Origin: Dehalogenimonas lykanthroporepellens BL-DC-9
GTDB lineage: Bacteria > Chloroflexota > Dehalococcoidia > Dehalococcoidales > Dehalococcoidaceae
Length of the DNA stretch: 64,000 nt
Assembly (NCBI GenBank): GCA_000143165.1
Contig: CP002084.1
Coordinates: forward strand, 1,116,001 to 1,180,000
Reading direction: 5' to 3'
The notes under the pieces are model-generated. The model was given only the letters and a program-made list of their open reading frames with translations, was not told the DNA's origin and did not search any database. Positions 12,284-59,823 of the stretch are shown here, in pieces; the first letter of the stretch is position 1, and each line of letters begins with the position of its first letter. The translations under genes and the position numbers were made by a program.

Positions 12284-13672
12284 TCAAATTTCTTGACCAT
12301 ACAGTGGTAAATCCAAATCCCACCACTGCTCGTATTCTGAAGTCAGCCCGTAACCGAAGGCATCATCCATATCACGGAAGAAGGAGGTAAACATCGAGGA
12401 ATTGGCGACAACAACCTTAATCAACGAGTGGACTGAAGCGATATCATACTTATTAAACATACATATGCCCTGGCAAATACCGCAACCGGCCGCCGGCCCC
12501 GTTATCCAGTAGTTGAAACAGGTATTGAAATTGGTTTTCCAGCTTTTTATGCCCGGGTTATTCCAGGGACCGGAGCCGGATTCCCAACTGGCGTCCTCGG
12601 TGCTGATCGAACCTGAGGGGCAGTTATCAGAGCATTTCAGGCAACCAGCACAGAATTTTTCAATGCCGGCATCGATTGGATTGGTAGGAGCCATGGGGAA
12701 ATCGGTAATCAGCATCATGGGCATACGGACAAGGGCCCCATGCTTGGGTGATATCAAGACCCCCATTCTTCCCAGTTCACCTAATCCGCTTAGTGTGCCG
12801 AAACCTGTAATAGCACCCGGGTGAGAACCGATTCCCCGATAGCCGAGATTTCCCAGGAAGTTCTGGACATGAGCCTGAGTCACCGCGGCGCGGGAGTAAG
12901 CGTGGGCGAAAGTCGCGGTACCGAGCTGGGTCCCAACCCGTTTATTAAGTTCATGGGACTGGACAATGGAGTAGCTCAGCACCCACCGGAATCGGTTAGG
13001 AATAACTTTGGTAGTGGCGGTTTCTTCAGGTTCATCCACGTCCCGGAAAACAATATCGTGTTGCCCATCGTTGGCAAATATAAGTTTCCTGGTTTGTTCG
13101 GTCAGCTCGGTAACACCGATTTCCGACCCGCCAAAGTGCCTGACAGCCGCCAGCATCGTCTGCAGATTTTCTTCTTCGGTGCCCTGCCAGGGTGGTAAGC
13201 CTTTATCCTTCGGATCCGAATGGTCACCAAGAGGCATTGCAGAACTATAGGTAGTATGGAGGAATTTCCCCGCCGAAGACAACCCGATTTCCTCACCAAA
13301 AATGGCTGACGCCTGAAGTGCCCAGTCCCGCCGGGTAAAGCCCGGTTGGTTGGCCAGGGCTTTTTGTCGCACTTCTTCATTCTGGGCCATCATCTTACCG
13401 ATGTTTTCGGGAGCAACGAAGGGAATGGCCTGGCCCATCGGTCGTTTGTCGAAACGTTGCATCTTGTTCCAGTCGATATCTGTCGTTGGTTTCCCGATGT
13501 CCATCTTCTTTATCCACCAGGGTTGTTTGTTCGGATCATTAGCAGATGAAGTCAGTTCATCGATATCCTGGAACGGGGTAGCTACACCGGCTGCTACTCC
13601 CAAACCGGCTCCGGCCAGTCCCAACCCTTTCATGAATTGCCGTCTTGATAACGTGTTGTGGTATTTAACCAT
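12284..13672 (-). CDS. rdhA: Reductive dehalogenase catalytic subunit (rdhA1, no rdhB beside it)
   Basis: RdhA is the corrinoid and Fe-S terminal reductase of organohalide respiration and acts on the outer face of the membrane. The 462-residue protein has a twin-arginine signal (SRRQFMKG, then a hydrophobic AGAGLGVAAGVA). Near its C-terminus are two [4Fe-4S] sites: CAGCLKCSDNCP (canonical CxxCxxCxxxCP) and GCGICQGICMF (CxxCxxxC, with the usual Pro replaced by Met, and an upstream Cys at NTCFNYW). The start is the ATG at 13672 after AGAGG; a TTG lies two codons upstream. No rdhB follows, so the anchor must come from elsewhere, for example rdhB at 16.2 kb. Its promoter carries the 11-bp-spaced TTAAC boxes. 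The substrate cannot be read from sequence. Confidence 0.95.
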   Translation of the reverse strand: MVKYHNTLSRRQFMKGLGLAGAGLGVAAGVATPFQDIDELTSSANDPNKQPWWIKKMDIGKPTTDIDWNKMQRFDKRPMGQAIPFVAPENIGKMMAQNEEVRQKALANQPGFTRRDWALQASAIFGEEIGLSSAGKFLHTTYSSAMPLGDHSDPKDKGLPPWQGTEEENLQTMLAAVRHFGGSEIGVTELTEQTRKLIFANDGQHDIVFRDVDEPEETATTKVIPNRFRWVLSYSIVQSHELNKRVGTQLGTATFAHAYSRAAVTQAHVQNFLGNLGYRGIGSHPGAITGFGTLSGLGELGRMGVLISPKHGALVRMPMMLITDFPMAPTNPIDAGIEKFCAGCLKCSDNCPSGSISTEDASWESGSGPWNNPGIKSWKTNFNTCFNYWITGPAAGCGICQGICMFNKYDIASVHSLIKVVVANSSMFTSFFRDMDDAFGYGLTSEYEQWWDLDLPLYGQEI

Positions 13673-13704: not shown

Positions 13705-13736
13705 ATTGTATAACCTGAAGGTTAAATTTTAGTTAA
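13705..13736 (-). promoter_or_regulatory. rdhA1 promoter with PhoB/OmpR-type direct repeat
   Basis: On the rdhA1 strand two TTAAC half-sites start exactly 11 bp apart (complement of GTTAA at 13732-13736 and 13721-13725). Ten bases after the second, TACAAT (complement of 13705-13710) could serve as the -10 element. There is no good -35, as expected for an activator-dependent promoter. The same arrangement occurs before rdhA2. Confidence 0.65.
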
Positions 13737-13775
13737 GAAAAAGTAATGCTAACATGAATGAACACACTGGGATTA

Positions 13776-14450
13776 TCAGACCGGCTTAAAAAGATAGCCG
13801 AGTCCGGAGACGTTATGTATGGGATCTTTTAATCCTATCTCATCCATTTTACGCCTCAGGTGATTGATATGGACCTTCAGTTTACCGATATTGTTTTCGG
13901 CTTCTTCACCCCAAATGCATTCCGAAAGGTGGTCGTAAGTAACTGCCGAGGGCGCGTTTTTTAATAACTCCAAGAGTATCTGACTCTCAATTATACTCAG
14001 GTGAATTTCCCGTCCTTCGAACAGCAGAGTCCGTTTAGAGATATTCAGTTCGATTTTATCGAATTTGATAAACTCGGTCTGTGTACCACGGGTTAAGGCC
14101 GTCAGCCGAGCAATAAGCTCGTTTTGCCGTGGGGGTTTAGTCAGGTAATCATTGGCGCCCATTGTCAGACAGTTGACAACATCTGTTTCCTCGCCCCGAC
14201 AGGTCAGCACCAGGATGGGGACCGGAGAGAAGAACCTGATGTCCTTGATGACCTGCAATCCGTCAGTGTCGGGCAGTCCGAGGTCAAGCACTACGACATC
14301 CGGATGGAAAGTCTCGACCAGTTCTATCCCCCCTTGCCCGTTGTTGGATGAAACGATATCCACGCTGGGAACAGCGCTTTCCAATGCGAATATCAGGGAT
14401 TCCACTACTCCGGGATCGTCTTCTATGATAAGGATTTTTTTCATATTCAT
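13776..14450 (-). CDS. OmpR/PhoB-family response regulator of the rdh locus
   Basis: The 224-residue protein has a receiver domain with acidic residues 11-12, phosphoacceptor Asp56 (VVLDLGLPD) and Lys in LTKPPRQ. A winged-helix domain follows, ending in HINHLRRKMDEIG ... VSGLGYLF. Its start overlaps the kinase stop by one base (TAATG), so the pair is translationally coupled. It sits between the kinase and rdhA1. OmpR/PhoB regulators bind direct repeats with about 11-bp spacing, which is what both rdhA promoters contain, so it is the likely activator of both. The direct link is inference. Confidence 0.93.
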   Translation of the reverse strand: MNMKKILIIEDDPGVVESLIFALESAVPSVDIVSSNNGQGGIELVETFHPDVVVLDLGLPDTDGLQVIKDIRFFSPVPILVLTCRGEETDVVNCLTMGANDYLTKPPRQNELIARLTALTRGTQTEFIKFDKIELNISKRTLLFEGREIHLSIIESQILLELLKNAPSAVTYDHLSECIWGEEAENNIGKLKVHINHLRRKMDEIGLKDPIHNVSGLGYLFKPV

Positions 14451-15991
14451 TACCCTGAAACCGGTAACACCAGCGTGAATTTACTGCCTTTTCCCGGTTG
14501 GCTGATTACGCTGACCGAACCATTATGAAGTTCAGCCAGATTTTTAGCCAGCGCCAGACCGAGGCCCAAACCACCTGTTTTAGAGAAATAAGGCTTGAAG
14601 ATAACGTCAAGCTGGCTCGGCTCGATTCCGACGCCATGGTCAACAATATCGATAACCGCATTTTTACCCTGTTCGCCGCTGTATATCTCGATAGCTTGTC
14701 CTGATACCGAATACTTGATGGCGTTGTTCAAAAGGTTGAGAATGATTTGACGGATTCTGCCCCGGTCGGCGTTCAGCCTTATGTTGGCCTTACCCTGGAA
14801 TTGTTCAAAGATAATATTTTTTTCTTTTATCTGGGGAGACAATAACTCAGTGACCTCAGCTATCAGGTCGTCCAGGTCGAATTTCGCAGGGGAAAGGGAC
14901 AGTGTGCCGACTTCGCTTCTTATCAGGTCATGCAAGTCATTAATTATGTCCTCGAGCAATCTGGCTCCCCGTACGATACCTTCCATTTGAGGTTTGAACC
15001 GTGGCTCGACTCTATCAGACAACGCTTCAGCGGTTAACATGATGGGGGTCAGCGGCGTTTTGAGTTCATGTACCAGTGCTCGATAAAATTCAGTTTGTTC
15101 GTAGGTTTGTTTTTCCAGACGGGACCTCAAGATGCGTTCCTGTTCCAACAGTTTTTCAATGGTTTCTTGTTTTTTTAATCGTGCGGAGATGTCCCGACAA
15201 ATAGCGATAGCGTATTTTTCGCCCCCGATTTCGACTACCTGCGCCCTCAGCTCCACATCTATCGATTGCCCGTTTTTAGCCAGATGCCTGGTTTCGATAG
15301 CCCCCTGCCCGTTACCCAGGAGCCGGCTTCGTCGGGCGTCCATAGCCGAACCGCACTCCGAAAGCGGGCGCAGTATGGATGTCGGTCGACCGATCAATTC
15401 CTCGCGCCGGTAACCCAGCATGCGGCAGGTTGCCGGATTTACATCGTAGATTATCGTATCCGGGAAATCCACTGCGTGAATTTTAGAAATAATTACAGAA
15501 TCGTTACAGTTCTCGAAGATGACATCGCGCTGGACGAGGTGAGACTCTTGAGCCTGGAGTGATTTCTGATGCTCCGTTCTTTCGGTGGCAATCTCCTGTC
15601 GGGCATCAGCCAGGTTAGAAGAGAGCTCTGTTGTCCGGCGATCATCCCGGGCAAGGATGAACACCATCTCGTTTTCACCATCGGCTATGTGATGCCCGCT
15701 GACAATTACAGGCACTTGTTCGCCTCTGCTGTCGACAAAAATTGTTTCTTTTTCAGAAACAGCGACACTCGCCAAGTTGGCGAACATTTTTCCCCATTTA
15801 CCCTTGTCCAGACTGGGATCCAGTTCCCATACGAACATCTTTTTCAGATTACCCTGAGTATGACCGAGAAAACGGCATAGGGCTTCATTAACGACCAGAA
15901 TACGCCCGCTCCGGTCTGCCCAAAGCGCCATAAGCCCCGAATGTTCCAGGGATAGTCCGGCCAGATGAAGGTATTTGCTGTTTTCTGTCAT
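14450..15991 (-). CDS. Cytoplasmic PAS-PAS sensor histidine kinase of the rdh locus
   Basis: The 513-residue protein has no membrane segment. Its first PAS domain spans about residues 8-125, a coiled-coil stretch about 125-155, and a second PAS about 155-285 (GYRREELIGRPTS). HisKA follows with H-box ALVHELKTPLTP near residue 315, then HATPase with N-box IILNLLNNAIKYS and G-boxes DHGVGIE and GGLGLGLALA. Soluble PAS kinases of this type are commonly encoded beside rdhA in Dehalococcoidia and are thought to sense halogenated compounds or redox state; the ligand here is unknown. It is transcribed from its own promoter at 16043-16071. Confidence 0.94.
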   Translation of the reverse strand: MTENSKYLHLAGLSLEHSGLMALWADRSGRILVVNEALCRFLGHTQGNLKKMFVWELDPSLDKGKWGKMFANLASVAVSEKETIFVDSRGEQVPVIVSGHHIADGENEMVFILARDDRRTTELSSNLADARQEIATERTEHQKSLQAQESHLVQRDVIFENCNDSVIISKIHAVDFPDTIIYDVNPATCRMLGYRREELIGRPTSILRPLSECGSAMDARRSRLLGNGQGAIETRHLAKNGQSIDVELRAQVVEIGGEKYAIAICRDISARLKKQETIEKLLEQERILRSRLEKQTYEQTEFYRALVHELKTPLTPIMLTAEALSDRVEPRFKPQMEGIVRGARLLEDIINDLHDLIRSEVGTLSLSPAKFDLDDLIAEVTELLSPQIKEKNIIFEQFQGKANIRLNADRGRIRQIILNLLNNAIKYSVSGQAIEIYSGEQGKNAVIDIVDHGVGIEPSQLDVIFKPYFSKTGGLGLGLALAKNLAELHNGSVSVISQPGKGSKFTLVLPVSG

Positions 15992-16042
15992 TTGTCGGCG
16001 TTTTTATGAAGTGACGATGATAGTCGGGTTTGGTTACGAATA

Positions 16043-16071
16043 ATTATAGTGAATATACTCGCCCTTGTCAG
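16043..16071 (-). promoter_or_regulatory. Sigma-70 promoter of the rdh-linked kinase/regulator operon
   Basis: On the minus strand CTGACA (16066-16071) and TATAAT (16043-16048) are spaced 17 bp apart. This is a near-consensus promoter without TTAAC boxes, suggesting the sensor pair is expressed constitutively while the dehalogenases are induced. Confidence 0.75.
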
Positions 16072-16087
16072 GGAATGTAAAGCATAT

Positions 16088-16130
16088 GAAAGCGGTGTCA
16101 TCCCTTCAAATCAGGAACGACACCGCTTTC
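16088..16130 (-). terminator. Hairpin downstream of rdhB
   Basis: A 12-bp perfect stem (16088-16099 with 16119-16130) and a 19-nt loop lie 12 bp after the rdhB stop. No T run follows on the minus strand, so it may be an mRNA-stabilising or weak termination hairpin separating rdhAB from the kinase operon. Confidence 0.6.
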
Positions 16131-16142
16131 GATTCACATTTT

Positions 16143-16415
16143 TTACTGTCGGGCCTGGTTGTGCCGCCAGGCGGTCAGGCCGGTAACAACTGCCAGAACA
16201 ACAGCCGGGATACCGAAAATCATCAATCCCAGGTTCGCCGCCTGAGGAATATTTTCCTGCATGGAACCCGAATAATGCTGGATGGCGGCAACAGCGAGAA
16301 TTATCGCCAGGGCGCCCATCAGCCATTCGTACCACCTCAGTTTAATGTTTTGCTTTAACAACCAGACGATTAGAGTGGCTACCGCCGCACCGAATAAAAA
16401 GAACAAAAAGTACAT
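16143..16415 (-). CDS. rdhB: Reductive dehalogenase membrane anchor RdhB
   Basis: The 90-residue protein has three predicted membrane helices, at about residues 1-20, 32-50 and 60-82. It shows the WYEWLMG-like segment typical of RdhB and ends in a short basic tail. It should tether the exported RdhA to the outer face of the cytoplasmic membrane. A GGAGG site precedes the ATG, and the gene starts 21 bp after rdhA2 ends, so the two form one transcript. It is the only rdhB in the window and may also serve rdhA1. Confidence 0.92.
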   Translation of the reverse strand: MYFLFFLFGAAVATLIVWLLKQNIKLRWYEWLMGALAIILAVAAIQHYSGSMQENIPQAANLGLMIFGIPAVVLAVVTGLTAWRHNQARQ

Positions 16416-16436
16416 ATTATCCTCCGTTACTTTTAT

Positions 16437-17813
16437 TTATCTGTAAGTATCATAACCATGAGTCGGTTGCTTCCACCAGGTTTCCCAGTAGCCTTCCTGA
16501 GGCAGTTTGCCATAACCCATGGCATGATCCATGTCGGCGAAGAAACTGTTGAATACCGGAGCGGTCGAGACGGTCAACCTGATGGCATCATGAATAAAGC
16601 TGGTTTTCTCTGCCGAATTGAACGGGCACGTCGCCTGACACTGCGGACAATGCGGGCAATTGGCAATGGTAGTTCGCCATCCTTTATATCCGGCTCTGAA
16701 ATCCGGCCGCGGGGTCTCCCAACTTGACGGCCCGGTTTCAATCAATCCCCCGGGGCAGGTATCAGCGCACAGGCCGCAGGTCTCACAGAAACGCATCAGT
16801 CCAGCGTCAATGGGATTGGTCGGCGGTAACGGCAGGTCGGTGTACATATTGTACAACCCGCGAATCGTCGCACCATATAACGGGTGGACACCGACACTAC
16901 CCATCCGAGCGTGTTCGATCATTCCTGTCACCGAACCGATGGCACCCCTCAAGCCGAAACCTGGCGCACCCCGGTAGCCAATGCCTCTCAGGAAAACCTG
17001 TATCCTTCGTTCGACTATGGCCAGGTGGGTATAGGCCATCCAGACGGCGGCGCTTTCAGCGATTCCCAGCGGGTTGCCGGCTTCAGCATCAGCTCTGCCG
17101 GCTCCGCCGCCCTGACGCAGAGTCAGGTCCTGAGCCTGACGCATTGTCCAGACGAAACCCCAGTTATAACTGGACGGTGTTACCTTAGTGCCATCGGCCT
17201 TTTGATATGGCTCGGAGATACCGCTTTCGGTGGCCCAATCTGCGTCTGCGATTTTCAGGCACTTGTCATCCCGTTCAACTACACCGACATCAGAACCACC
17301 CAGGAAACGAACGGCACCTCGCAGGAGTTTGAAATTCTCTTCCAGCGTCCCATTCCATTTGGGATACCCCTGTTCTTCTGGGGTCATGGTTACCGGCGGA
17401 CCGGCCAGGCTGGCTCCCAGGGCACCGCCTCTTTCCCTTGCCGCGGCATCGAGGGCGGCCCGGCGCGGATCGAGCCAGTCGAAAGTCGGGTCTCGCTTGT
17501 TCATGGCTTCTACATATTTCCGGCCGTTTTCCGTTGAATATGGGTCCATGTACAAAGGGTCTCCCGGAGACATCCTGACTCTGCCAGGGAACGGTTTGAT
17601 TACATCCCAGTCAATTTCTGCCGTCGGGTCATAAAGATCCCGTTGCTTTACCCACCATGGCATATCCGGCTTCTGGTAGTCGCCAATTGCGGCAAGTTCT
17701 TCCAGGTCTTGTACCGGCGGCGAAATTGCGGTAGCGGCTCCCAGACCGGCACCAGCCAATCCCAGTCCTTTCATAAAGTCACGGCGTGAGATAGTGCTGT
17801 GAAATGTCGACAT
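16437..17813 (-). CDS. rdhA: Reductive dehalogenase catalytic subunit (rdhA2)
   Basis: The 458-residue terminal reductase of organohalide respiration has a Tat signal (SRRDFMKG followed by AGAGLGAATAI). Its two C-terminal Fe-S motifs are complete: CETCGLCADTCP and CPHCPQCQATCPF. Upstream segments such as GIGYRGAPGFGLRGAIG are typical of the corrinoid-binding core. The ATG at 17813 follows AGGAGG. It is co-transcribed with rdhB, and its promoter has the same TTAAC direct repeat as rdhA1. It differs clearly from rdhA1 in the middle of the protein, so substrate ranges may differ. The substrate is unknown. Confidence 0.96.
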   Translation of the reverse strand: MSTFHSTISRRDFMKGLGLAGAGLGAATAISPPVQDLEELAAIGDYQKPDMPWWVKQRDLYDPTAEIDWDVIKPFPGRVRMSPGDPLYMDPYSTENGRKYVEAMNKRDPTFDWLDPRRAALDAAARERGGALGASLAGPPVTMTPEEQGYPKWNGTLEENFKLLRGAVRFLGGSDVGVVERDDKCLKIADADWATESGISEPYQKADGTKVTPSSYNWGFVWTMRQAQDLTLRQGGGAGRADAEAGNPLGIAESAAVWMAYTHLAIVERRIQVFLRGIGYRGAPGFGLRGAIGSVTGMIEHARMGSVGVHPLYGATIRGLYNMYTDLPLPPTNPIDAGLMRFCETCGLCADTCPGGLIETGPSSWETPRPDFRAGYKGWRTTIANCPHCPQCQATCPFNSAEKTSFIHDAIRLTVSTAPVFNSFFADMDHAMGYGKLPQEGYWETWWKQPTHGYDTYR

Positions 17814-17848
17814 ATATCCTCCTTTGCTTTTTTTAGATTCTTACAATA

Positions 17849-17880
17849 ATTGTATAAAACAGGGGTTAATTTATTGTTAA
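17849..17880 (-). promoter_or_regulatory. rdhA2 promoter with PhoB/OmpR-type direct repeat
   Basis: The two TTAAC half-sites (complement of GTTAA at 17876-17880 and 17865-17869) are 11 bp apart. They are followed after 10 bp by TACAAT, with TTATACAATT shared with the rdhA1 promoter. Spacing between boxes and -10 is identical at both promoters to the base. Confidence 0.65.
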
Positions 17881-18378: not shown

Positions 18379-18702
18379 TCAACACCGCGCCAGCTTGTCG
18401 CTGATGAGCCGGTTCAGGCTGACCCTGGATTCTGCGGCCTGAATCTGAAGAGCTTTATGCAATTCCGGGGTGATACGTACCTGAAGCTTGCCGGAACAAT
18501 TCTTTGAAGCTAAGGGTTCGGGTACGGATTCGCCGTTGGCCGCCAAATCCTGAATTACCTGGCTTACCGTATTCCGGATACCAACCAATGCTTCTCCCTG
18601 GCTTTCTGCCAGCCAGCTCAAGGAAGGGAACTCAGCGCACAGCCCGACATATTCTTCGTCTTCATCCGACCAGGTTACTCTGTAAGTGTATTTATCCATC
18701 AT
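18379..18702 (-). CDS. hicB: HicB-family antitoxin
   Basis: The 107-residue protein has the HicB N-terminal fold (YTYRVTWSDEDEEYVGLCAEFPSLSWLAES) and a C-terminal ribbon-helix-helix or HTH-like domain (GKLQVRITPELHKALQIQAAESRVSLNRLI). In intact modules HicB binds and neutralises the mRNase HicA and represses the operon. Here hicA, immediately upstream, is broken, so this is an orphan antitoxin or degenerate module. Start ATG codons at 18702 and 18699 overlap the hicA remnant frame. Confidence 0.85.
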   Translation of the reverse strand: MMDKYTYRVTWSDEDEEYVGLCAEFPSLSWLAESQGEALVGIRNTVSQVIQDLAANGESVPEPLASKNCSGKLQVRITPELHKALQIQAAESRVSLNRLISDKLARC

Positions 18703-18862
18703 TAACTCCTAACCGGTCCAAGCCCTGTAATACCTGCTTGACCTGATAAGGTTTCGCTTTTCCGTTTTTATCCTGTATGTTGATTCTGGCATCACCTTGC
18801 CATGGTGTCTTATAGATACGGTGACTGCCCTTGTTTTGTCGAGACTCCCCAAAGTGTTGCCA
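18692..18862 (-). pseudogene. hicA: hicA toxin remnant
   Basis: Read in frame on the minus strand, these 56 codons match the C-terminal two-thirds of HicA toxins: HFGESRQ, then the active-site context GSHRIYKTPWQGD, then INIQ and KAKPYQVKQVL. A TAG at 18863-18865 blocks the frame, and no start or N-terminal third can be found upstream. The toxin is therefore truncated. It overlaps the hicB start, as in intact hicAB operons. About 120 bp of unrecognisable DNA separates it from the IS5-type element. Confidence 0.75.
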
Positions 18863-18986
18863 CTATTGGTACTCATATTGCAAGCCGTAACCAGCCCATC
18901 CGATGTAATATTGAGAGCCGGGTCAACAACATAACAATAGCGACCTCTGGTGTTTCCTGTCCAGGCGCTGGAATACTCAATTCTAA

Positions 18987-20177
18987 GGAATCTCTGAACA
19001 AGTCACGTTTGATGAGGTATAATTAGTCATCCATAAACGAAGGATGGCGAAGTTAATGAAGACCTTGTCATTTGCCAGTCTGGCTTATGCTAACAAAAAG
19101 AAACAGACGCGACGGGAAGTATTCCTTCAGGAAATGGATCGGGTAATTCCCTGGAAAGAACTACTGGAAATCATAGTTGAGTATTACCCCAAAGCCGGTA
19201 ATGGTCGACATCCAATGCCGCTGGAGCGCATGCTACGGATATATTTCATGCAACAGTGGTACGGTTTATCGGATCCGGCGATGGAAGACGCGCTTTACGA
19301 TATAGAATCGATGAGACGATTTGCCGGAATCGATATCCAATCTGACCCTGTACCGGATGAAAGTACTATACTGCATTTTCGTCATCTGCTGGAGAAGCAC
19401 AATCTGACCATGGCGTTATTTGAAAAGACAAGGAATTATCTTTCAGACAAAGGTTTATTGTTAAAAGAAGGGACAATAGTCGACGCTACGATAATCAATG
19501 CGCCATCTTCGACCAAAAACCGGGATAAGGCCCGAGACCCACAGATGCGACAGACCAAAAAGGGGAATCAGTGGTATTTTGGCATGAAGGCTCATATAGG
19601 CGCAGACACCGGCAAGGGACTGGCGCATACGATAGTGGTGACCGATGCCTCAGTTCATGATTCACAGGTCATGGATAAGTTACTGCACGGAGAGGAAAAG
19701 GCGGTCTATGGAGATAAAGCCTATACCAGTGAGGAAAGGCAAAGACGTTACGAATCCCGAGGCATTGATTGGCGGGTAAAACGCAAAGCCAGCCGGCACT
19801 ATCAACTGACACCGGAAGACGCCGAGTTTAACCGAAGACAAGGCAAAGTTCGAGCCAAGGGTGAGCATGCGTTTCTGGTGGTCAAGCATCTATGGCGATA
19901 CCGGAAGGTCAAATACAAAGGCCTCCACAAGAATATGGTGCAGGTCTTCAGCCTGTTCACGCTGGCTAATTTATATCTGGTACGCCGGGAATTAAGCATG
20001 ATGGCAACCTGAAGGGTGAATTGCGCCCAATAACCGGAAAACCGCTCCTTCAGGGTGGAGCAAACCGGATAAAGGCCGGTGTAACCTGCCAAAAACACTG
20101 CGGTTTCGCTTCGTGGGCGCAAGATATCACCAACAATATCACCGAAACTTTACAACTATGTGTTTTTCAGAGGTTCC
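18987..20177 (+). mobile_element. IS5-family insertion sequence, complete
   Basis: The element is 1191 bp. Terminal inverted repeats begin GGAATCTCTGAA on the left and GGAACCTCTGAA on the right (read inward). It is flanked by the 4-bp direct duplication CTAA (18983-18986 and 20178-20181), fitting the YTAR target preference of the IS5 group. The single transposase gene is intact, so the copy could be active. Confidence 0.93.
19044..20012 (+). CDS. IS5-family transposase
   Basis: This is a 322-residue DDE transposase. The N-terminal DUF772-like domain (MERMLRIYFMQQWYGLSD-type segment, residues 50-75) is followed by the catalytic core: first Asp in TIVDATIINAP, second in VYGDKAYTS, and the Glu region in KGEHAFLVVKHLWRYRKVKYKG. 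Length and domain order match the IS5 group. It lies wholly within the element bounded by CTAA duplications. No frameshift is seen. Confidence 0.94.
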   Translation: MAKLMKTLSFASLAYANKKKQTRREVFLQEMDRVIPWKELLEIIVEYYPKAGNGRHPMPLERMLRIYFMQQWYGLSDPAMEDALYDIESMRRFAGIDIQSDPVPDESTILHFRHLLEKHNLTMALFEKTRNYLSDKGLLLKEGTIVDATIINAPSSTKNRDKARDPQMRQTKKGNQWYFGMKAHIGADTGKGLAHTIVVTDASVHDSQVMDKLLHGEEKAVYGDKAYTSEERQRRYESRGIDWRVKRKASRHYQLTPEDAEFNRRQGKVRAKGEHAFLVVKHLWRYRKVKYKGLHKNMVQVFSLFTLANLYLVRRELSMMAT

Positions 20178-51514: not shown

Positions 51515-52204
51515 ATGCAAAATAAAGTATTAATTGTTGAGGACGACCCTAATCTACTGAAAACTCTCAAATACAACCTGAACAAAGAGAGTTATGATGT
51601 GGTCATTGCTGCGGATGGGGAGCAGGCACTTGAGGTAGCTCGTAAGGAAAAACCTGATCTTATCTTGCTCGATATTATGTTGCCGAAACTTAGTGGGTTT
51701 GAAGTATGCCGCATCCTCCGCAAGGAAATGAATTCACCTATTTTAATGTTAACTGCGAAAGCTGATGAGACTGACAAAATAGTTGGGCTTGAAATTGGGG
51801 CCGATGACTATGTCACCAAGCCTTTTAGCATGAGAGAGCTGATAGCTCGCGTTAGAGCCATGCTTCGCAGGACACAAATTATGGAGACGAAACCGTCCGA
51901 AGATAAAATTATTAAAATTGGAGACATCAGAGTTGATATAGATCGGCATCAGGCTTCATTAGCGGAAGTTATCCTGGAACTGAAACCAAAAGAGTTTGAT
52001 TTATTGGCTTTTCTAGCTAGAAACAAGGGTTTGGTTTTTAGCAGAGAGCAGCTGTTAGAAAAAGTATGGGGTTATGATTATGCTGGCGATACCAGGACGG
52101 TTGACGTGCACATCCGGTGGTTAAGGCAGAAAATTGAAAATGACCCGGGTAACCCAACCTATCTCGTAACTGTCAGGGGCACAGGTTATAAACTGGAAGG
52201 TTAG
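51515..52204 (+). CDS. PhoB/PhoP-like OmpR-family response regulator
   Basis: The 229-residue protein has a receiver domain with acidic residues 10-11, phosphoacceptor Asp53 (LILLDIMLPK), and DDYVTKPFSMREL. The winged helix ends in VDVHIRWLRQKIENDPGNPTYLVTVRGTGYKL. The start is ATG 51515 after AGGTGGG. The kinase gene follows at once. Three to four 11-bp TTAA repeats behind the kinase gene are its probable binding site. PhoB/PhoP-like by sequence, but no phosphate transporter genes are present. Confidence 0.93.
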   Translation: MQNKVLIVEDDPNLLKTLKYNLNKESYDVVIAADGEQALEVARKEKPDLILLDIMLPKLSGFEVCRILRKEMNSPILMLTAKADETDKIVGLEIGADDYVTKPFSMRELIARVRAMLRRTQIMETKPSEDKIIKIGDIRVDIDRHQASLAEVILELKPKEFDLLAFLARNKGLVFSREQLLEKVWGYDYAGDTRTVDVHIRWLRQKIENDPGNPTYLVTVRGTGYKLEG

Positions 52205-52206
52205 GA

Positions 52207-53952
52207 TTGTTCAAAAGTATTCAGTGGCGGATCGCAATACCTTTTATAATCCTCATACTCGTTAGTACGGGGATTACTGGCGGTTACCTCATAAGCTCTG
52301 TAAGAAACTCACAGATCGATAATTTAAGATTCCACCTAGAAGAAGAAGCCCGTATAACCGCTGAAGCCAGTTTGCCACTACTTATTCAGAATAGCGACCT
52401 TGATATTTTAGCAAAGAAATTAGGGCAAGAAATCGAAGCACGAGTCACTATCATTGCTCCGAACGGGAAAGTTTTAGGTGACTCGCAAGAGAACCCAGCC
52501 GCGATGGAAAACCACGCCACCCGCCCTGAGGTGAAAGATGCTCTAACCTCAGGCTTTGGTGAAAGTACCCGTTATAGCATTACCCTGAATGAACAGATGA
52601 TGTATGTTGCAGTACCTATTTATAGCCAGGAAACTGTCCTTGGAGTAGCAAGGGTAGCTTTGCCACTGACGGCTATCCAAAAATCAATAAATCATTTAAC
52701 ACTTACTATCATTCTTACAATGGTAGGTTTAGCTTTGTTAACAGTATTGGCTGCTTGGTTTATTGCTCGCAGGACTACGGGACCGCTTCGGCAACTTACC
52801 AAAGCAACCAAGCAAATTACAGCCGGTCAATTAGGCCGAAAAATTACCTTAAATACTGGAGATGAAATAGGGCAGCTCGGCAATGCTTTTAATGAAATGT
52901 CATCAAGCTTAAAGAGCACAATGGAAGCGGTCTCAGCAGAAAAAGCCAAACTATCAACGGTTCTTAATAATATGGTCGATGGCGTAATATTAACTGACAA
53001 AGAGGGTATCATTTCAACTGCGAACCGCACCGCCAGTAAATTGTTTGGATTTGAAGATAAGAATGTGTCAGGTAAATCCATAATCGAAGTGGTGCGCGAG
53101 CATGAAGTTGATGCAGTGTTAGTAAGGTGCTTACAAACCAGTAAAGAACAGTCAGCCCAATTTGAGTCGGCCGTAACGAAACGTTTCATAAGAGTAATAG
53201 CCGCACCGGTTATTGATGGCAAGCCAAGCGAAATCCTACTGCTCTTTCAAGATCTCACGGAATTAAGAAACCTGCAAACAATGCGTAAGGAATTAGTAGG
53301 TAATATATCTCATGAGTTGAGGACACCCATTACTGGCATCAAAGCCATGGTCGAGACCTTGCATGACGGAGCAATCGATGATAAAGAAGCCGCTAAGGAC
53401 TTCTTAACCCGGATTGAATCTGAAGTTGACCGTTTGGCGCAGACGGTTTCTGAATTAACTGAGCTCAGTCGTATCGAAACTGGTAAAGCTGAATTAAGGC
53501 TTGAGCCTTTAGATCTCAATGTCCTGGTCAAAGATGTGATTGAGCAGCTACAACCTTTAGCAGAAAGGCAACAGGTGACCGTATCTGCTACTTTGGCGAA
53601 AGATTTACCCGAAGTCCTGGCTGACCGAGATCGTATCAGGCAAACGATTATTAATTTGGTTCATAATGCCGTTAAGTTTAATAGAGTTGGTGGCAACGTG
53701 AAACTATATACCAAGACCAACAATAATGAAGTTATCGTAGATATATCAGACACAGGTATTGGAATTTCAAAAGATGATTTACCTCATGTCTTTGAGCGAT
53801 TTTATAAAGCCGATAGAGCCCGTTCAAAAAGTGGTAGTGGACTTGGGTTAGCTATTGCCAAGCACACTATCCAAGCCCACAACGGAAAAATATGGGTTGC
53901 GAGTGAACAGGGCAACGGTTCCACATTTAGCTTCAGCTTACCTCTCAAATAA
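52207..53952 (+). CDS. PhoR-like membrane sensor histidine kinase
   Basis: The 581-residue protein has two membrane helices (about residues 10-30 and 162-184) flanking an extracytoplasmic sensor (LEEEARITAEASLPLL). HAMP follows (ARRTTGPLRQLTKATKQITAGQLGRKI), then PAS (about 255-350), HisKA with H-box GNISHELRTPITGIKAM near residue 370, N-box TIINLVHNAVKFN, and G-boxes DTGIGIS and SGSGLGLAIA. The start is TTG 52207, two bases after the regulator stop. The sensor is typical of phosphate or envelope-stress kinases. Confidence 0.93.
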   Translation: MFKSIQWRIAIPFIILILVSTGITGGYLISSVRNSQIDNLRFHLEEEARITAEASLPLLIQNSDLDILAKKLGQEIEARVTIIAPNGKVLGDSQENPAAMENHATRPEVKDALTSGFGESTRYSITLNEQMMYVAVPIYSQETVLGVARVALPLTAIQKSINHLTLTIILTMVGLALLTVLAAWFIARRTTGPLRQLTKATKQITAGQLGRKITLNTGDEIGQLGNAFNEMSSSLKSTMEAVSAEKAKLSTVLNNMVDGVILTDKEGIISTANRTASKLFGFEDKNVSGKSIIEVVREHEVDAVLVRCLQTSKEQSAQFESAVTKRFIRVIAAPVIDGKPSEILLLFQDLTELRNLQTMRKELVGNISHELRTPITGIKAMVETLHDGAIDDKEAAKDFLTRIESEVDRLAQTVSELTELSRIETGKAELRLEPLDLNVLVKDVIEQLQPLAERQQVTVSATLAKDLPEVLADRDRIRQTIINLVHNAVKFNRVGGNVKLYTKTNNNEVIVDISDTGIGISKDDLPHVFERFYKADRARSKSGSGLGLAIAKHTIQAHNGKIWVASEQGNGSTFSFSLPLK

Positions 53953-53986
53953 AAGCCTCGCAAAATAATCCCTGGTTATCAAAGAT

Positions 53987-54040
53987 TTAACCGCGCGTTA
54001 ACAATGTGTTAAAGCGCCGTTAAAGTCCCCCTTGTATTCT
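53987..54040 (+). promoter_or_regulatory. Four-repeat Pho-box promoter leading into the first IS256 copy
   Basis: TTAAC at 53987 and 53998, then TTAAA at 54009 and 54020, are exactly 11 bp apart. After 10 bp comes TATTCT (54035-54040), the likely -10. A ribosome site (GAAGGAGGGGGG) and ATG at 54091-54093 follow, but the IS element begins at the next base. The original gene is gone. Confidence 0.65.
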
Positions 54041-54093
54041 ATTAATAGATGGACATAAGCGTATTTGGATTATCAGAAGGAGGGGGGCAGATG

Positions 54094-55467
54094 GTAGTGT
54101 CCCGTCAAGTGGTGTAAATTCATCATTGGTGGTTTCCCGAATAATCAAGCTGGTAAAGCCATGATCAGGGGTTCCTCCTGCGCCCCTTCCAGCGTTTTCT
54201 TCATCGAATCCAAAGAAAAGTAGCGTCGTCCGACCTCCCACTCGTCCTGCTGTTCCATTAACACCGCCCCAATCAGCCTGATTACCGATTGGCTGTTGGG
54301 AAAGATGCCGACCACATTACTGCGGCGCTTGATTTCCTTGTTCAGTCTCTCCAGGGGATTGGTAGAGTACAGTTGCCGCCAGTGTTCCCGCGGGAAGGCG
54401 GTATAGGCCAGGATATCCGGTTCTGCCTCTTCCAATTGGTCGGCCACAGGACCGAATCGGAGTCTGAGGTTATCGGCTACCCGGCGGAGTTGGCTGCAAG
54501 CGCTATCGCGGTCAGGTTGAGCGAAAATGGTCCGGATAGCGGCAGATACCATAGCCTGGGCGCCCCGCGGCACTCTGGCCAGCGCATTGCGCATGAAGTG
54601 CACCCGGCAGCGTTGCCACGATACCCCGGTGAGTACCGTGCTGATGGCTTCCTTCAGCCCCAGATGAGCATCACTGATTACCAGCATCACCCCGCTCAAA
54701 CCACGGCTGACCAACCCCCGCAGAAACTCTTTCCAGAATACACCGTCTTCACTGGGGCCGACCTCAAGCCCGATGATCTCGCGTTCTCCGGTTTCACGGA
54801 CTCCGTAGGCGATAATTACCGCCTGACTGACCACCCGCCCTGAATCCCTGACCTTGACGTAGGTCGCATCCAGCCACAGATAGGGATAACGCCATAACAA
54901 AGGCCGGTGGCGCCATCGTTCCACTTCATCGTCCAGAGCCCCGCATATTCGCGATACCTCGCTCTTACTGACCCCGTTAAGCCCCAGTGACTGAACCAGA
55001 GATTCCACCTTGCGGGTGCTGATGCCCAATACATAGGCTTCCTGGATTACCGCCAGCAAGGCATGTTCCGCCCGGCGCCGGGGCTCGAGCAAGCTGGGGA
55101 AATAACTGCCGTCCCGCAACCGGGGAATCGCCAAGGGTATCGTGCCGGCCCGGGTGTCCCAGATACGCCCCCGGTAGCCGTTACGGTAGGTTAAACGACC
55201 GTTACTGCGCTCATGTTTCTCAGCTCCGGTCTTCTGCTTAACCTCAAGCTCCATGACCGCTTCGGCCAGCATCTTCACCCCTTCTCTCAGAAAATCAAGA
55301 TCACCGTCACTTCCTGACTTGCGTAGCAATTCCAAAAGTGTCATCCTGTCTTTGGCCATTGTCGTGGTTACCTCCTGAAAGTTTGTGTTGTTACTTTCTT
55401 TCAAGAAACCACACAATGGCCTGCTTTTTCAACTCCAGGAATTTACACCACGTATTGGGATTCTACT
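54094..55467 (-). mobile_element. IS256-family element, copy 1 (no target duplication)
   Basis: The element is 1374 bp. Inverted ends start GTAGTGTCCC on the left and share GTGGTGTAAATTC with the right end read inward. Left flank (GGGCAGATG) and right flank (AACTGCTGG) do not match. The left flank is a start codon behind a Pho-type promoter; the right flank is the middle of a slipin gene. This indicates deletion or recombination at the element. Confidence 0.92.
54145..55359 (-). CDS. IS256-family transposase, copy 1
   Basis: This is a 404-residue mutator-type DDE transposase. Visible are the N-terminal segment LLELLRKSGSDGDLDFLREGVKML, first catalytic Asp in YLWLDATYVKVRD, second in VISDAHLGL, the C/H motif region CRVHFMRNAL and the C-terminal Glu region in NPLERLNKEIKRRS. 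The start is ATG 55359 after AGGAGGTAACC. It differs from copy 2 by only two residues (His versus Gln near RRRAE, Cys versus Tyr near DSA). Confidence 0.94.
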   Translation of the reverse strand: MAKDRMTLLELLRKSGSDGDLDFLREGVKMLAEAVMELEVKQKTGAEKHERSNGRLTYRNGYRGRIWDTRAGTIPLAIPRLRDGSYFPSLLEPRRRAEHALLAVIQEAYVLGISTRKVESLVQSLGLNGVSKSEVSRICGALDDEVERWRHRPLLWRYPYLWLDATYVKVRDSGRVVSQAVIIAYGVRETGEREIIGLEVGPSEDGVFWKEFLRGLVSRGLSGVMLVISDAHLGLKEAISTVLTGVSWQRCRVHFMRNALARVPRGAQAMVSAAIRTIFAQPDRDSACSQLRRVADNLRLRFGPVADQLEEAEPDILAYTAFPREHWRQLYSTNPLERLNKEIKRRSNVVGIFPNSQSVIRLIGAVLMEQQDEWEVGRRYFSLDSMKKTLEGAQEEPLIMALPA

Positions 55468-55850
55468 AACTGCTGGCCGAGCGGGACAAACTGAACGACA
55501 TCGTCCAGGACATCATCGACAAGCACACCGACCCGTGGGGCATCAAGGTCAGCACCGTCGAAATCAAGGAAGTGGAACTGCCCGAAGCCATGCGCCGGTC
55601 AATGGCGGCTCAGGCGGAGGCGGAACGGGAACGCCGGGCCAAGATCATCCACGCCGAAGGCGAATTCCAGGCGGCGGCCAAGCTGTCGGAAGCCGGTAGC
55701 GTCATCGCCAAGGAACCGGTAACCCTGCAACTGCGCTACCTGCAGACATTGACCGAGATTGCCTCGGAAAACAATTCTACGTTGATTTTCCCGGTGCCGG
55801 TGGATCTGATCACCATGTTCATGAAGAACATGGAAAACAAAAACAAGTAA
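55468..55850 (+). pseudogene. Slipin/stomatin (SPFH) C-terminal fragment
   Basis: The frame reads from the IS boundary: [21 protein letters not shown], then [38 protein letters not shown], then [13 protein letters not shown]. This is the conserved C-terminal half of a slipin, a membrane SPFH protein. The membrane anchor and N-terminal half are missing because the IS256 copy replaces them. Roughly 125 codons remain, and no start or promoter is apparent. Confidence 0.85.
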
Positions 55851-58449: not shown

Positions 58450-59823
58450 GTAGTGTCCCGTCAAGTGGTGTAAATTCATCATTGGTGGTTTCCCGAATAA
58501 TCAAGCTGGTAAAGCCATGATCAGGGGTTCCTCCTGCGCCCCTTCCAGCGTTTTCTTCATCGAATCCAAAGAAAAGTAGCGTCGTCCGACCTCCCACTCG
58601 TCCTGCTGTTCCATTAACACCGCCCCAATCAGCCTGATTACCGATTGGCTGTTGGGAAAGATGCCGACCACATTACTGCGGCGCTTGATTTCCTTGTTCA
58701 GTCTCTCCAGGGGATTGGTAGAGTACAGTTGCCGCCAGTGTTCCCGGGGGAAGGCGGTATAGGCCAGGATATCCGGTTCTGCCTCTTCCAATTGGTCGGC
58801 CACAGGACCGAATCGGAGTCTGAGGTTATCGGCTACCCGGCGGAGCTGGCTGTAAGCGCTGTCGCGGTCAGGTTGAGCGAAGATGGTCCGGATAGCGGCA
58901 GATACCATAGCCTGGGCGCCCCGCGGCACTCTGGCCAGCGCATTGCGCATGAAGTGCACCCGGCAGCGTTGCCACGATACCCCGGTGAGTACCGTGCTGA
59001 TGGCTTCCTTCAGTCCCAGATGAGCATCACTGATTACCAGCATCACCCCGCTCAAACCACGGCTGACCAACCCCCGCAGAAACTCTTTCCAGAATACACC
59101 GTCTTCACTGGGGCCGACCTCAAGCCCGATGATCTCGCGTTCTCCGGTTTCACGGACTCCGTAGGCGATAATTACCGCCTGACTGACCACCCGCCCTGAA
59201 TCCCTGACCTTGACGTAGGTCGCGTCCAGCCACAGATAGGGATAACGCCATAACAAAGGCCGGTGGCGCCATCGTTCCACTTCATCGTCCAGAGCCCCGC
59301 ATATTCGCGATACCTCGCTCTTACTGACCCCGTTAAGCCCCAGTGACTGAACCAGAGATTCCACCTTGCGGGTGCTGATGCCCAATACATAGGCTTCCTG
59401 GATTACCGCCAGCAAGGCTTGTTCCGCCCGGCGCCGGGGCTCGAGCAAGCTGGGGAAATAACTGCCGTCCCGCAACCGGGGAATCGCCAAGGGTATCGTG
59501 CCGGCCCGGGTGTCCCAGATACGCCCCCGGTAGCCGTTACGGTAGGTTAAACGACCGTTACTGCGCTCATGTTTCTCAGCTCCGGTCTTCTGCTTAACCT
59601 CAAGCTCCATGACCGCTTCGGCCAGCATCTTCACCCCTTCTCTCAGAAAATCAAGATCACCGTCACTCCCTGACTTGCGTAGCAGTTCCAAAAGTGTCAT
59701 CCTGTCTTTGGCCATTGTTGTGGTTACCTCCTGAAAGTCTTTGTTGTTATTTTCTTTCAAGAAACCACACAATGGCCTGCTTTTTCAATTCCAGGAATTT
59801 ACACCACGTACGGGGATTCTACT
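58450..59823 (-). mobile_element. IS256-family element, copy 2, with 9-bp target duplication
   Basis: The 1374-bp element is nearly identical to copy 1. It is flanked by direct CGCCCGGCG repeats (58441-58449 and 59824-59832), the 8-9 bp duplication typical of IS256. Removing the element and one repeat restores the reading frame VAQTTAGRLLSIG of the potassium-channel gene, proving a simple insertion. Confidence 0.95.
58501..59715 (-). CDS. IS256-family transposase, copy 2
   Basis: The 404-residue mutator-type DDE transposase has the same motifs as copy 1 (LDATYVKVRD, VISDAHLGL, NPLERLNKEI) and is intact. The start is ATG 59715 after AGGAGGTAACC. The clean target duplication around this copy implies recent transposition, and the near-identity of the two copies implies that copy number rose recently. 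Confidence 0.94.
   Translation of the reverse strand: MAKDRMTLLELLRKSGSDGDLDFLREGVKMLAEAVMELEVKQKTGAEKHERSNGRLTYRNGYRGRIWDTRAGTIPLAIPRLRDGSYFPSLLEPRRRAEQALLAVIQEAYVLGISTRKVESLVQSLGLNGVSKSEVSRICGALDDEVERWRHRPLLWRYPYLWLDATYVKVRDSGRVVSQAVIIAYGVRETGEREIIGLEVGPSEDGVFWKEFLRGLVSRGLSGVMLVISDAHLGLKEAISTVLTGVSWQRCRVHFMRNALARVPRGAQAMVSAAIRTIFAQPDRDSAYSQLRRVADNLRLRFGPVADQLEEAEPDILAYTAFPREHWRQLYSTNPLERLNKEIKRRSNVVGIFPNSQSVIRLIGAVLMEQQDEWEVGRRYFSLDSMKKTLEGAQEEPLIMALPA

What the first reader, a model, noticed from the sequence alone, without database searches (positions are those of the whole stretch)
13705..17880. Identical 11-bp-spaced TTAAC boxes in both reductive-dehalogenase promoters
Upstream of rdhA1 and rdhA2 the layout is the same to the base: TTAAC, 6 bp, TTAAC, 10 bp, TACAAT within TTATACAATT. 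An 11-bp direct repeat is the usual PhoB/OmpR-type site. The regulator gene between the two rdhA genes is of that class. This predicts one regulon: a soluble PAS kinase and its regulator activate both dehalogenases, while the sensor pair has its own strong unregulated promoter.
Basis: partly seen in the sequence, partly recalled or inferred. Interest (0 to 1): 0.72.

Follow-up and report, generated by a model that had tools for sequence, protein, structure and literature searches.

The report
Response-regulator sites at two dehalogenase promoters
Two genes for enzymes that strip chlorine from pollutants carry the same switch-like DNA signal just ahead of their start, and similar signals recur next to related regulator genes in sister bacteria, so the regulator encoded between them very probably turns both on; this is a good, testable example of an ordinary kind of bacterial switch.

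Summary
TTAAC-N6-TTAAC-N10-TACAAT lies upstream of both rdhA genes, and the full pattern occurs nowhere else in the 1.69-Mb genome. Neither promoter has a recognisable -35 box, whereas the kinase-regulator pair has an 11/12 sigma-70 match and a terminator ahead of it. The main new evidence comes from ten sister genomes. With the two own promoters left out, TCS-adjacent rdhA promoters score highest for exactly period 11 and spacer 10 (z 7.7; 5.1 after collapsing related regulators), and rdhA promoters without a regulator nearby do not (z 1.0). The KTWAC-N10-TANNNT signature tracks the regulator's own clade: 7 of 8 clade regulators against 3 of 25 others, p 2e-4. One correction: TTAAC repeats at period 11 are not dehalogenase-specific. 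In this genome they also precede the pst operon and follow a PhoP/WalR-type kinase gene, so cross-binding by another regulator is not excluded. The regulator's helix resembles KdpE, whose half-sites are TTTATA/TTTACA at the same period. I found no earlier description of this cis-element in the held papers. No binding or expression data exist here.

The parts
13732..13736 (-). upstream half-site TTAAC of the rdhA1 promoter
13721..13725 (-). downstream half-site TTAAC of the rdhA1 promoter, 11 bp from the first
13705..13710 (-). -10 hexamer TACAAT of rdhA1, 10 bp after the second half-site
12284..13672 (-). rdhA1, reductive dehalogenase (ATG at 13672 after GGGAGAGG; twin-arginine signal SRRQFMK); no rdhB found next to it
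13776..14450 (-). response regulator, OmpR/PhoB type; nearest solved structure KdpE; recognition helix KLKVHINHLRRK
14450..15991 (-). soluble PAS histidine kinase (H-box HELKTPL)
16043..16071 (-). sigma-70-like promoter of the kinase-regulator pair, CTGACA-17-TATAAT (11/12)
16088..16130 (-). terminator-like hairpin (18 pairs) between rdhB and the kinase promoter
16143..16415 (-). rdhB, small hydrophobic membrane anchor
16437..17813 (-). rdhA2, reductive dehalogenase (SRRDFMK)
17876..17880 (-). upstream half-site TTAAC of the rdhA2B promoter
17865..17869 (-). downstream half-site TTAAC of the rdhA2B promoter
17849..17854 (-). -10 hexamer TACAAT of rdhA2B
53985..54040 (+). comparison site, not part of the rdh cluster: four TTAAC/TTAAA units at period 11, N10, TATTCT, downstream of a PhoP/WalR-type TCS (51518-53952)

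Best explanation
The boxes are a two-half-site operator for the OmpR/PhoB-type response regulator encoded between the two rdhA genes. The kinase and regulator are made at a basal level from their own sigma-70 promoter. On an unknown cytoplasmic signal (organohalide or redox), the soluble PAS kinase phosphorylates the regulator. Two regulator subunits then bind head to tail on TTAAC-N6-TTAAC, covering the place where a -35 box would be, and recruit sigma-70 RNA polymerase to TACAAT 10 bp downstream. This co-activates rdhA1 and rdhA2B. Shown: the sites, their geometry, the missing -35, the intact TCS, and the co-occurrence of this signature with the same regulator clade in other genomes. Inferred: binding, activation rather than repression, the signal, and that this regulator rather than another is the main binder.
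For: Full pattern only at these two promoters in the genome. Only these 2 of about 20 rdhA genes have it, and they are the two flanking this TCS. Out-of-sample test on 49 TCS-adjacent rdhA promoters, nearly all from sister genomes: score peaks at period 11 and spacer 10 in a 7x7 grid (z 7.7, next 5.3), against 1.0 for 17 rdhA promoters with no regulator found nearby; still the peak (5.1) after averaging within 21 regulator clusters, and at 4.3 (next 4.1) when only the nearest rdhA per cluster is used. KTWAC-N10-TANNNT at rdhA promoters of 7 of 8 regulators in the same clade against 3 of 25 others (Fisher p 2e-4; about 4% expected), with the spacing count peaking at 10. The regulator tree groups the local regulator with two Dehalococcoides regulators next to rdhA (support 100/95); one of those has TTTAC-N6-TTAAC-N10-TACAAT. 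Score correlates with identity to the local regulator (Spearman 0.52, p 1.4e-4). Nearest solved structure is KdpE (E about 1e-35), which binds TTTATA-N5-TTTACA and needs R193 and R200 (PMC3264566); the aligned residues here are K and R, while the two PhoP-type regulators have D at the first.
Against: The same TTAAC word and near-identical spacing occur at non-rdh promoters in this genome and across the order, so the sequence alone does not name the binder. Several TCS-adjacent rdhA promoters, and one regulator inside the clade (L110_9325), lack the signature. Orthologous promoters inflate the counts: the 7 positive clade regulators represent about four independent lineages. Some clade members had been seen with the motif before the clade was drawn. 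The Dehalococcoides triplet has 12 rather than 11 bp between its TTTAC words. No expression or binding data.
Confidence: 0.72

Rival explanations
1. The boxes are Pho-type sites read by one of the genome's PhoP/WalR-type regulators (window 51518-52204, or the pair near the pst operon), placing the two dehalogenases under phosphate or envelope control; the neighbouring TCS is incidental or secondary.
For: Same TTAAC word, period 11 and N10 to a TA...T -10 at the pst operon (tandem units) and after the PhoP/WalR-type kinase gene. One 11-mer unit, GCGTTAACAAT, is identical in the rdhA2 promoter and the 53985 site. Order-wide the pattern precedes regulators, ppk and ammonium transporter genes.
Against: Only the two rdhA genes flanking this TCS carry it, of about 20. 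In sister genomes the signature follows the clade of the adjacent rdh regulator. rdhA sites have two units where Pho sites have four or five. The Pho-type regulators differ at the KdpE-R193 position.
Confidence: 0.12
2. Both: the local regulator is the main activator, but because the half-site word is shared, a PhoP/WalR-type regulator also binds and modulates the two promoters.
For: Shared word and geometry in one genome; both regulator types share a V-H-I ... L-R-x-K recognition-helix frame.
Against: No direct evidence; regulators usually discriminate by bases outside the core, which cannot be read from two sites.
Confidence: 0.1
3. The regulator represses: bound over the -35/-10 spacer it blocks polymerase, and phosphorylation releases it.
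For: The site overlaps the core promoter.
Against: Neither rdhA promoter has a -35 hexamer matching TTGACA at 16-18 bp (at most 3 of 6, read), so it should need an activator; the S. multivorans regulator, whose sites also overlap -35, was argued to activate (PMC7755780).
Confidence: 0.04
4. Coincidence of AT-rich promoter sequence.
For: TTAAC is AT-rich, intergenic DNA is AT-rich, and direct repeats of 10-12 bp are somewhat enriched at TCS-adjacent rdhA promoters whatever the word.
Against: 0.10 boxes expected in the window against 5 found; a score as high as the own two was never reached in 9,900 shuffled promoters; out-of-sample peak at exactly 11/10.
Confidence: 0.02

Closest known systems
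E. coli KdpE and its kdpFABC site (TTTATA-N5-TTTACA; PMC3264566)
   Same: Period-11 AT-rich direct repeat with near-identical half-site word; nearest solved structure to the regulator; basic residue and arginine at the two essential helix positions.
   Different: Not a KdpE by NCBIfam cut-off (134 of 325 bits); falls outside the KdpE branch in the tree; no kdp genes in the cluster; the partner kinase is a soluble PAS protein, not KdpD-like.
PhoB/PhoP Pho box promoters (PMC4415409, PMC4832192)
   Same: 11-nt direct repeat units in place of a -35, read by tandem winged-helix domains of the same protein family.
   Different: Here two units, no pst/phoA genes; below the PhoB cut-off (135 of 296 bits); different helix residues.
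Sulfurospirillum multivorans PceP/PceS (TCS2) regulating pceAB (PMC7755780)
   Same: TCS with OmpR-family regulator controlling reductive dehalogenase genes through direct repeats overlapping the -35 region; TCS made at low constitutive level.
   Different: Site is CTATW-N17-CTATW; the sensor kinase is membrane-bound with seven helices; the site sequences are unrelated.
rdhPS two-component systems of Dehalogenimonas and Dehalococcoides (PMC13390414)
   Same: Same gene context: soluble kinase plus regulator beside rdhAB; this cluster is an instance.
   Different: That work names the gene neighbourhood as the likely regulator but, in the section read, describes no cis-element for it; the operator is what is added here.

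Membership tests
OmpR/PhoB-family response regulators | Receiver domain plus winged-helix Trans_reg_C domain | tested here: met
   PF00072 E 5e-24 and PF00486 E 2e-14, both over cut-off
OmpR/PhoB-family response regulators | Binds direct-repeat DNA | not testable with these tools
   direct repeats present at both promoters; binding needs a gel shift
rdhPS two-component systems of Dehalococcoidia | Regulator and kinase genes adjacent to rdhA(B) | tested here: met
rdhPS two-component systems of Dehalococcoidia | Kinase lacks transmembrane helices | tested here: met
   highest 19-aa hydropathy 0.93 vs 2.54 for the membrane kinase at 52207-53952
rdhPS two-component systems of Dehalococcoidia | Regulator groups with other rdh-linked regulators rather than with housekeeping ones | tested here: met
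   clade with two Dehalococcoides rdh regulators, support 100/95
KdpE | Scores above the KdpE equivalog cut-off | tested here: not met
   134 of 325 bits
PhoB / Pho regulon | Scores above the PhoB equivalog cut-off | tested here: not met
   135.4 of 296.2 bits
PhoB / Pho regulon | Site made of 11-nt direct repeat units in place of a -35 | tested here: met
   shows it works like one, not that it is one
CprK/FNR dehalobox control | TTAAT-N4-ATTAA palindrome at the promoter | tested here: not met
   no match in the window, nor the FNR site
MarR (Rdh2R-type) control | Divergent marR gene next to rdhA | tested here: inconclusive
   no such gene recognised among the ORFs around 12.3-18.7 kb, but only some ORFs were profile-searched

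The most novel reading that the evidence does not exclude
The rdh-linked regulators of Dehalococcoidia form a readable specificity code: each regulator clade keeps the same frame (two half-sites 11 bp apart, 10 bp from the -10) while the half-site word drifts with its recognition helix (TTWAC for this clade; TTAGN for another, L164 and L187). Because this clade's word equals the genome's Pho-type word, dehalogenation and nutrient starvation could be wired together by cross-binding.
Probability: 0.2. Interest if true: 0.65.

Novelty: new member of a known kind. Interest (0 to 1): 0.5.

Why it matters
TCS control of dehalogenase genes in these slow-growing, genetically intractable bioremediation bacteria has been proposed from gene neighbourhood, and a 2026 comparative study says the regulatory role still needs verification (PMC13390414). 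A concrete operator makes it testable with purified protein and short DNA or in a surrogate host, and allows orphan dehalogenases to be assigned to regulators by sequence. If the word is really shared with Pho-type regulators, nutrient status at contaminated sites could influence dehalogenase expression.

Tried and rejected
CprK dehalobox and FNR palindromes: none in the window. Recent duplication of the promoter block: rejected, flanks unrelated. Reading the motif as rdhA-specific: rejected after finding it at pst and a PhoP/WalR-type TCS. Word-agnostic repeat test: TCS-adjacent promoters show excess at 10-12 bp but without a sharp -10 spacing, so it could reflect phased A-tracts; not used as main evidence. 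The genome-contig scan with the regulator protein returned only distant, non-Chloroflexota hits. KTWAC pattern totals per genome are not above control; location next to rdhA, not total count, carries the signal. The one- and two-mismatch sites in the own genome outside pst and the 53985 site showed no rdhA or consistent gene downstream. No AlphaFold job was run: fold assignment by sequence was already unambiguous.
Full report
WHAT IS THERE. The window lies in a complete 1,686,510-bp genome; the length and gene content fit Dehalogenimonas lykanthroporepellens BL-DC-9 (own knowledge, not tested by name). On the minus strand the order is rdhA2 (17813-16437), rdhB (16415-16143), a PAS histidine kinase (15991-14450), an OmpR/PhoB-type response regulator (14450-13776) and rdhA1 (13672-12284). 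The leader from -10 to ATG is also alike (32 and 35 nt). At 16-18 bp upstream of each -10 there is at most 3 of 6 agreement with TTGACA (read), so these look activator-dependent. By contrast the kinase has CTGACA-17-TATAAT, 11 of 12, and the rdhA2B operon is closed by an 18-pair terminator-like hairpin. The kinase has no membrane-spanning stretch and keeps its phosphorylatable H-box.

IS IT MORE THAN CHANCE. The full pattern occurs twice in the genome, 0 times reversed. The bare double box occurs 7 times (control 1), in four promoter-like places. With 2 mismatches allowed there is no excess over control. The two promoters resemble each other only across the 40 bp from first box to just after the -10 (29/40, against 0-3 per 10 in most flanking blocks), and the proteins are 34% identical. 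That argues for selection on the sites rather than recent duplication.

A CORRECTION. The word is not private. In this genome tandem 11-bp units ending N10 before TATACT precede an mgsA-like gene and a phosphate-binding PstS gene, with an alkaline phosphatase gene upstream. Four units ending N10 before TATTCT follow a PhoP/WalR-type TCS inside the window. Across 61 genomes of the order the pattern is found 30 times against 1 in the reversed control, ahead of response regulators, polyphosphate kinase, ammonium transporter, HtrA-like and secreted-protein genes. So TTAAC-N6-TTAAC-N10 is a general OmpR/PhoB-type promoter signature in this order, and the word alone does not identify the local regulator as binder.

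WHO BINDS: COMPARATIVE TEST. I fetched stretches around the regulator's relatives in ten sister Dehalogenimonas and Dehalococcoides genomes and extracted 68 distinct rdhA promoters. Leaving out the two own promoters, 49 rdhA promoters within 3.5 kb of a regulator homologue were scored for TTAAC-(period)-TTAAC-(spacer)-TATAAT over a 7x7 grid against shuffles. The maximum is exactly period 11, spacer 10 (combined z 7.7; next best 5.3); 17 promoters with no regulator found nearby give 1.0 there. After averaging within 21 regulator clusters (at least 60% identity) the peak stays at 11/10 (z 5.1, next 4.0); with one promoter per cluster it is 4.3 with neighbours at 4.1. The score rises with identity of the adjacent regulator to the local one (Spearman 0.52, p 1.4e-4). 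Examples: TTTAC-N6-TTAAC-N10-TACAAT next to the closest relative (45%) in G008; TTAAC-N6-GTAAC-N10-TATGAT in G006; TTTAC-N6-GTTAC-N10-TATACT directly behind a regulator gene in G003. In a maximum-likelihood tree the local regulator joins two Dehalococcoides rdh regulators (100/95), within a 7-row clade (96/86) and a 9-row clade (92/75); the two PhoP-type regulators of this genome and KdpE lie outside. KTWAC-N10-TANNNT is present at rdhA promoters of 7 of 8 clade members (own excluded) and 3 of 25 others (p 2e-4; about 4% expected in shuffles), and the count peaks at spacer 10. Caveats: three of the seven are one orthologous group with 12 bp between TTTAC words, and two more are orthologues, so about four lineages are independent. 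Some members were seen with the motif before the clade was drawn. Shuffles were first-order resamples. The no-regulator group is small, and for the own genome only 1.5 kb flanks were inspected.

HOW THE PROTEIN COULD READ IT. The nearest solved structures are E. coli KdpE, including DNA-complex entry 4kfc (entry described). KdpE reads TTTATA-N5-TTTACA, period 11, and needs R193 and R200 in the recognition helix (PMC3264566). The aligned residues here are K and R (KLKVHINHLRRK); the closest rdh regulators keep them (KLKVHIQYLRTK), while the PhoP-type regulators have D at the first (TVDVHIRWLRQK). The match is of mode, not membership: KdpE and PhoB equivalog cut-offs are missed by far.

MECHANISM. 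Most likely: basal kinase and regulator; signal sensed in the cytoplasm by the PAS kinase; phosphorylated regulator dimerises head to tail on the two half-sites, standing in for the -35 and recruiting sigma-70 polymerase to TACAAT; rdhA1 and rdhA2B are co-induced. Steps shown: site, geometry, gene layout, co-occurrence with regulator clade. Steps inferred: binding, phosphorylation, activation, signal, exclusivity.

RELATION TO KNOWN WORK. TCS control of rdhA is proposed from gene neighbourhood for Dehalogenimonas and Dehalococcoides, with soluble kinases, and is stated to await verification (PMC13390414). In Sulfurospirillum an OmpR-type regulator binds CTATW-N17-CTATW over the -35 of pceAB (PMC7755780). 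I found no description of the present element in the open papers searched; the 2013 Dehalococcoides regulation paper was not held, so absence from the literature is not proven.

VERDICT. Observation confirmed; interpretation largely right on regulon and regulator class, with the correction that the word is shared with Pho-type promoters. A new instance of a known kind of switch, useful because it makes an open regulatory question directly testable.

Noticed in passing
window 53985-55500: A four-unit TTAAC-type promoter downstream of a PhoP/WalR-type TCS is followed at once by an IS256 copy (54145-55416); the DNA beyond the element reads as a fragment of an SPFH/slipin-like gene, so the promoter seems separated from its original target.
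   Followed up: partly
window 54145-55416 and 58501-59772: Two nearly identical IS256 transposase genes about 4 kb apart, bracketing rubrerythrin-like and other genes.
   Followed up: no
L112 7966-12041 (G010:C1, contig 1,469,720 bp): Regulator-kinase-rdhA-rdhB cluster; the contig length fits D. mccartyi 195 and the position suggests the DET0315-0319 (pceAB) cluster (own knowledge). Its promoter keeps TTAAC-N10-TAGAAT but has a degenerate upstream box.
   Followed up: partly
L164 5345 and L187 2551 (upstream regions): Two related rdhA promoters beside a different regulator clade have TTAGT-N6-TTAGC-N10-TACAAT and TTAGT-N6-TTAGA-N10-TACTAT: same frame, different word, different recognition helix (YLHVFIGRLR/YLHVFIGKLR).
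   Followed up: partly
window 12284-13672: rdhA1 has no rdhB recognisable next to it, unlike rdhA2; how it would be anchored is unclear.
   Followed up: no
window 18379-20012: HicB-like antitoxin ORF (18379-18702, minus; no NCBIfam match) followed by an IS5-family transposase (19044-20012), just upstream of the rdh cluster.
   Followed up: no
order-wide, loci L075-L102: TTAAC-N6-TTAAC-N10-TA...T is enriched 30 to 1 over its reversed control across 61 genomes of the order, often ahead of response-regulator genes and secreted or stress proteins: a general, apparently undescribed promoter class of the group.
   Followed up: partly
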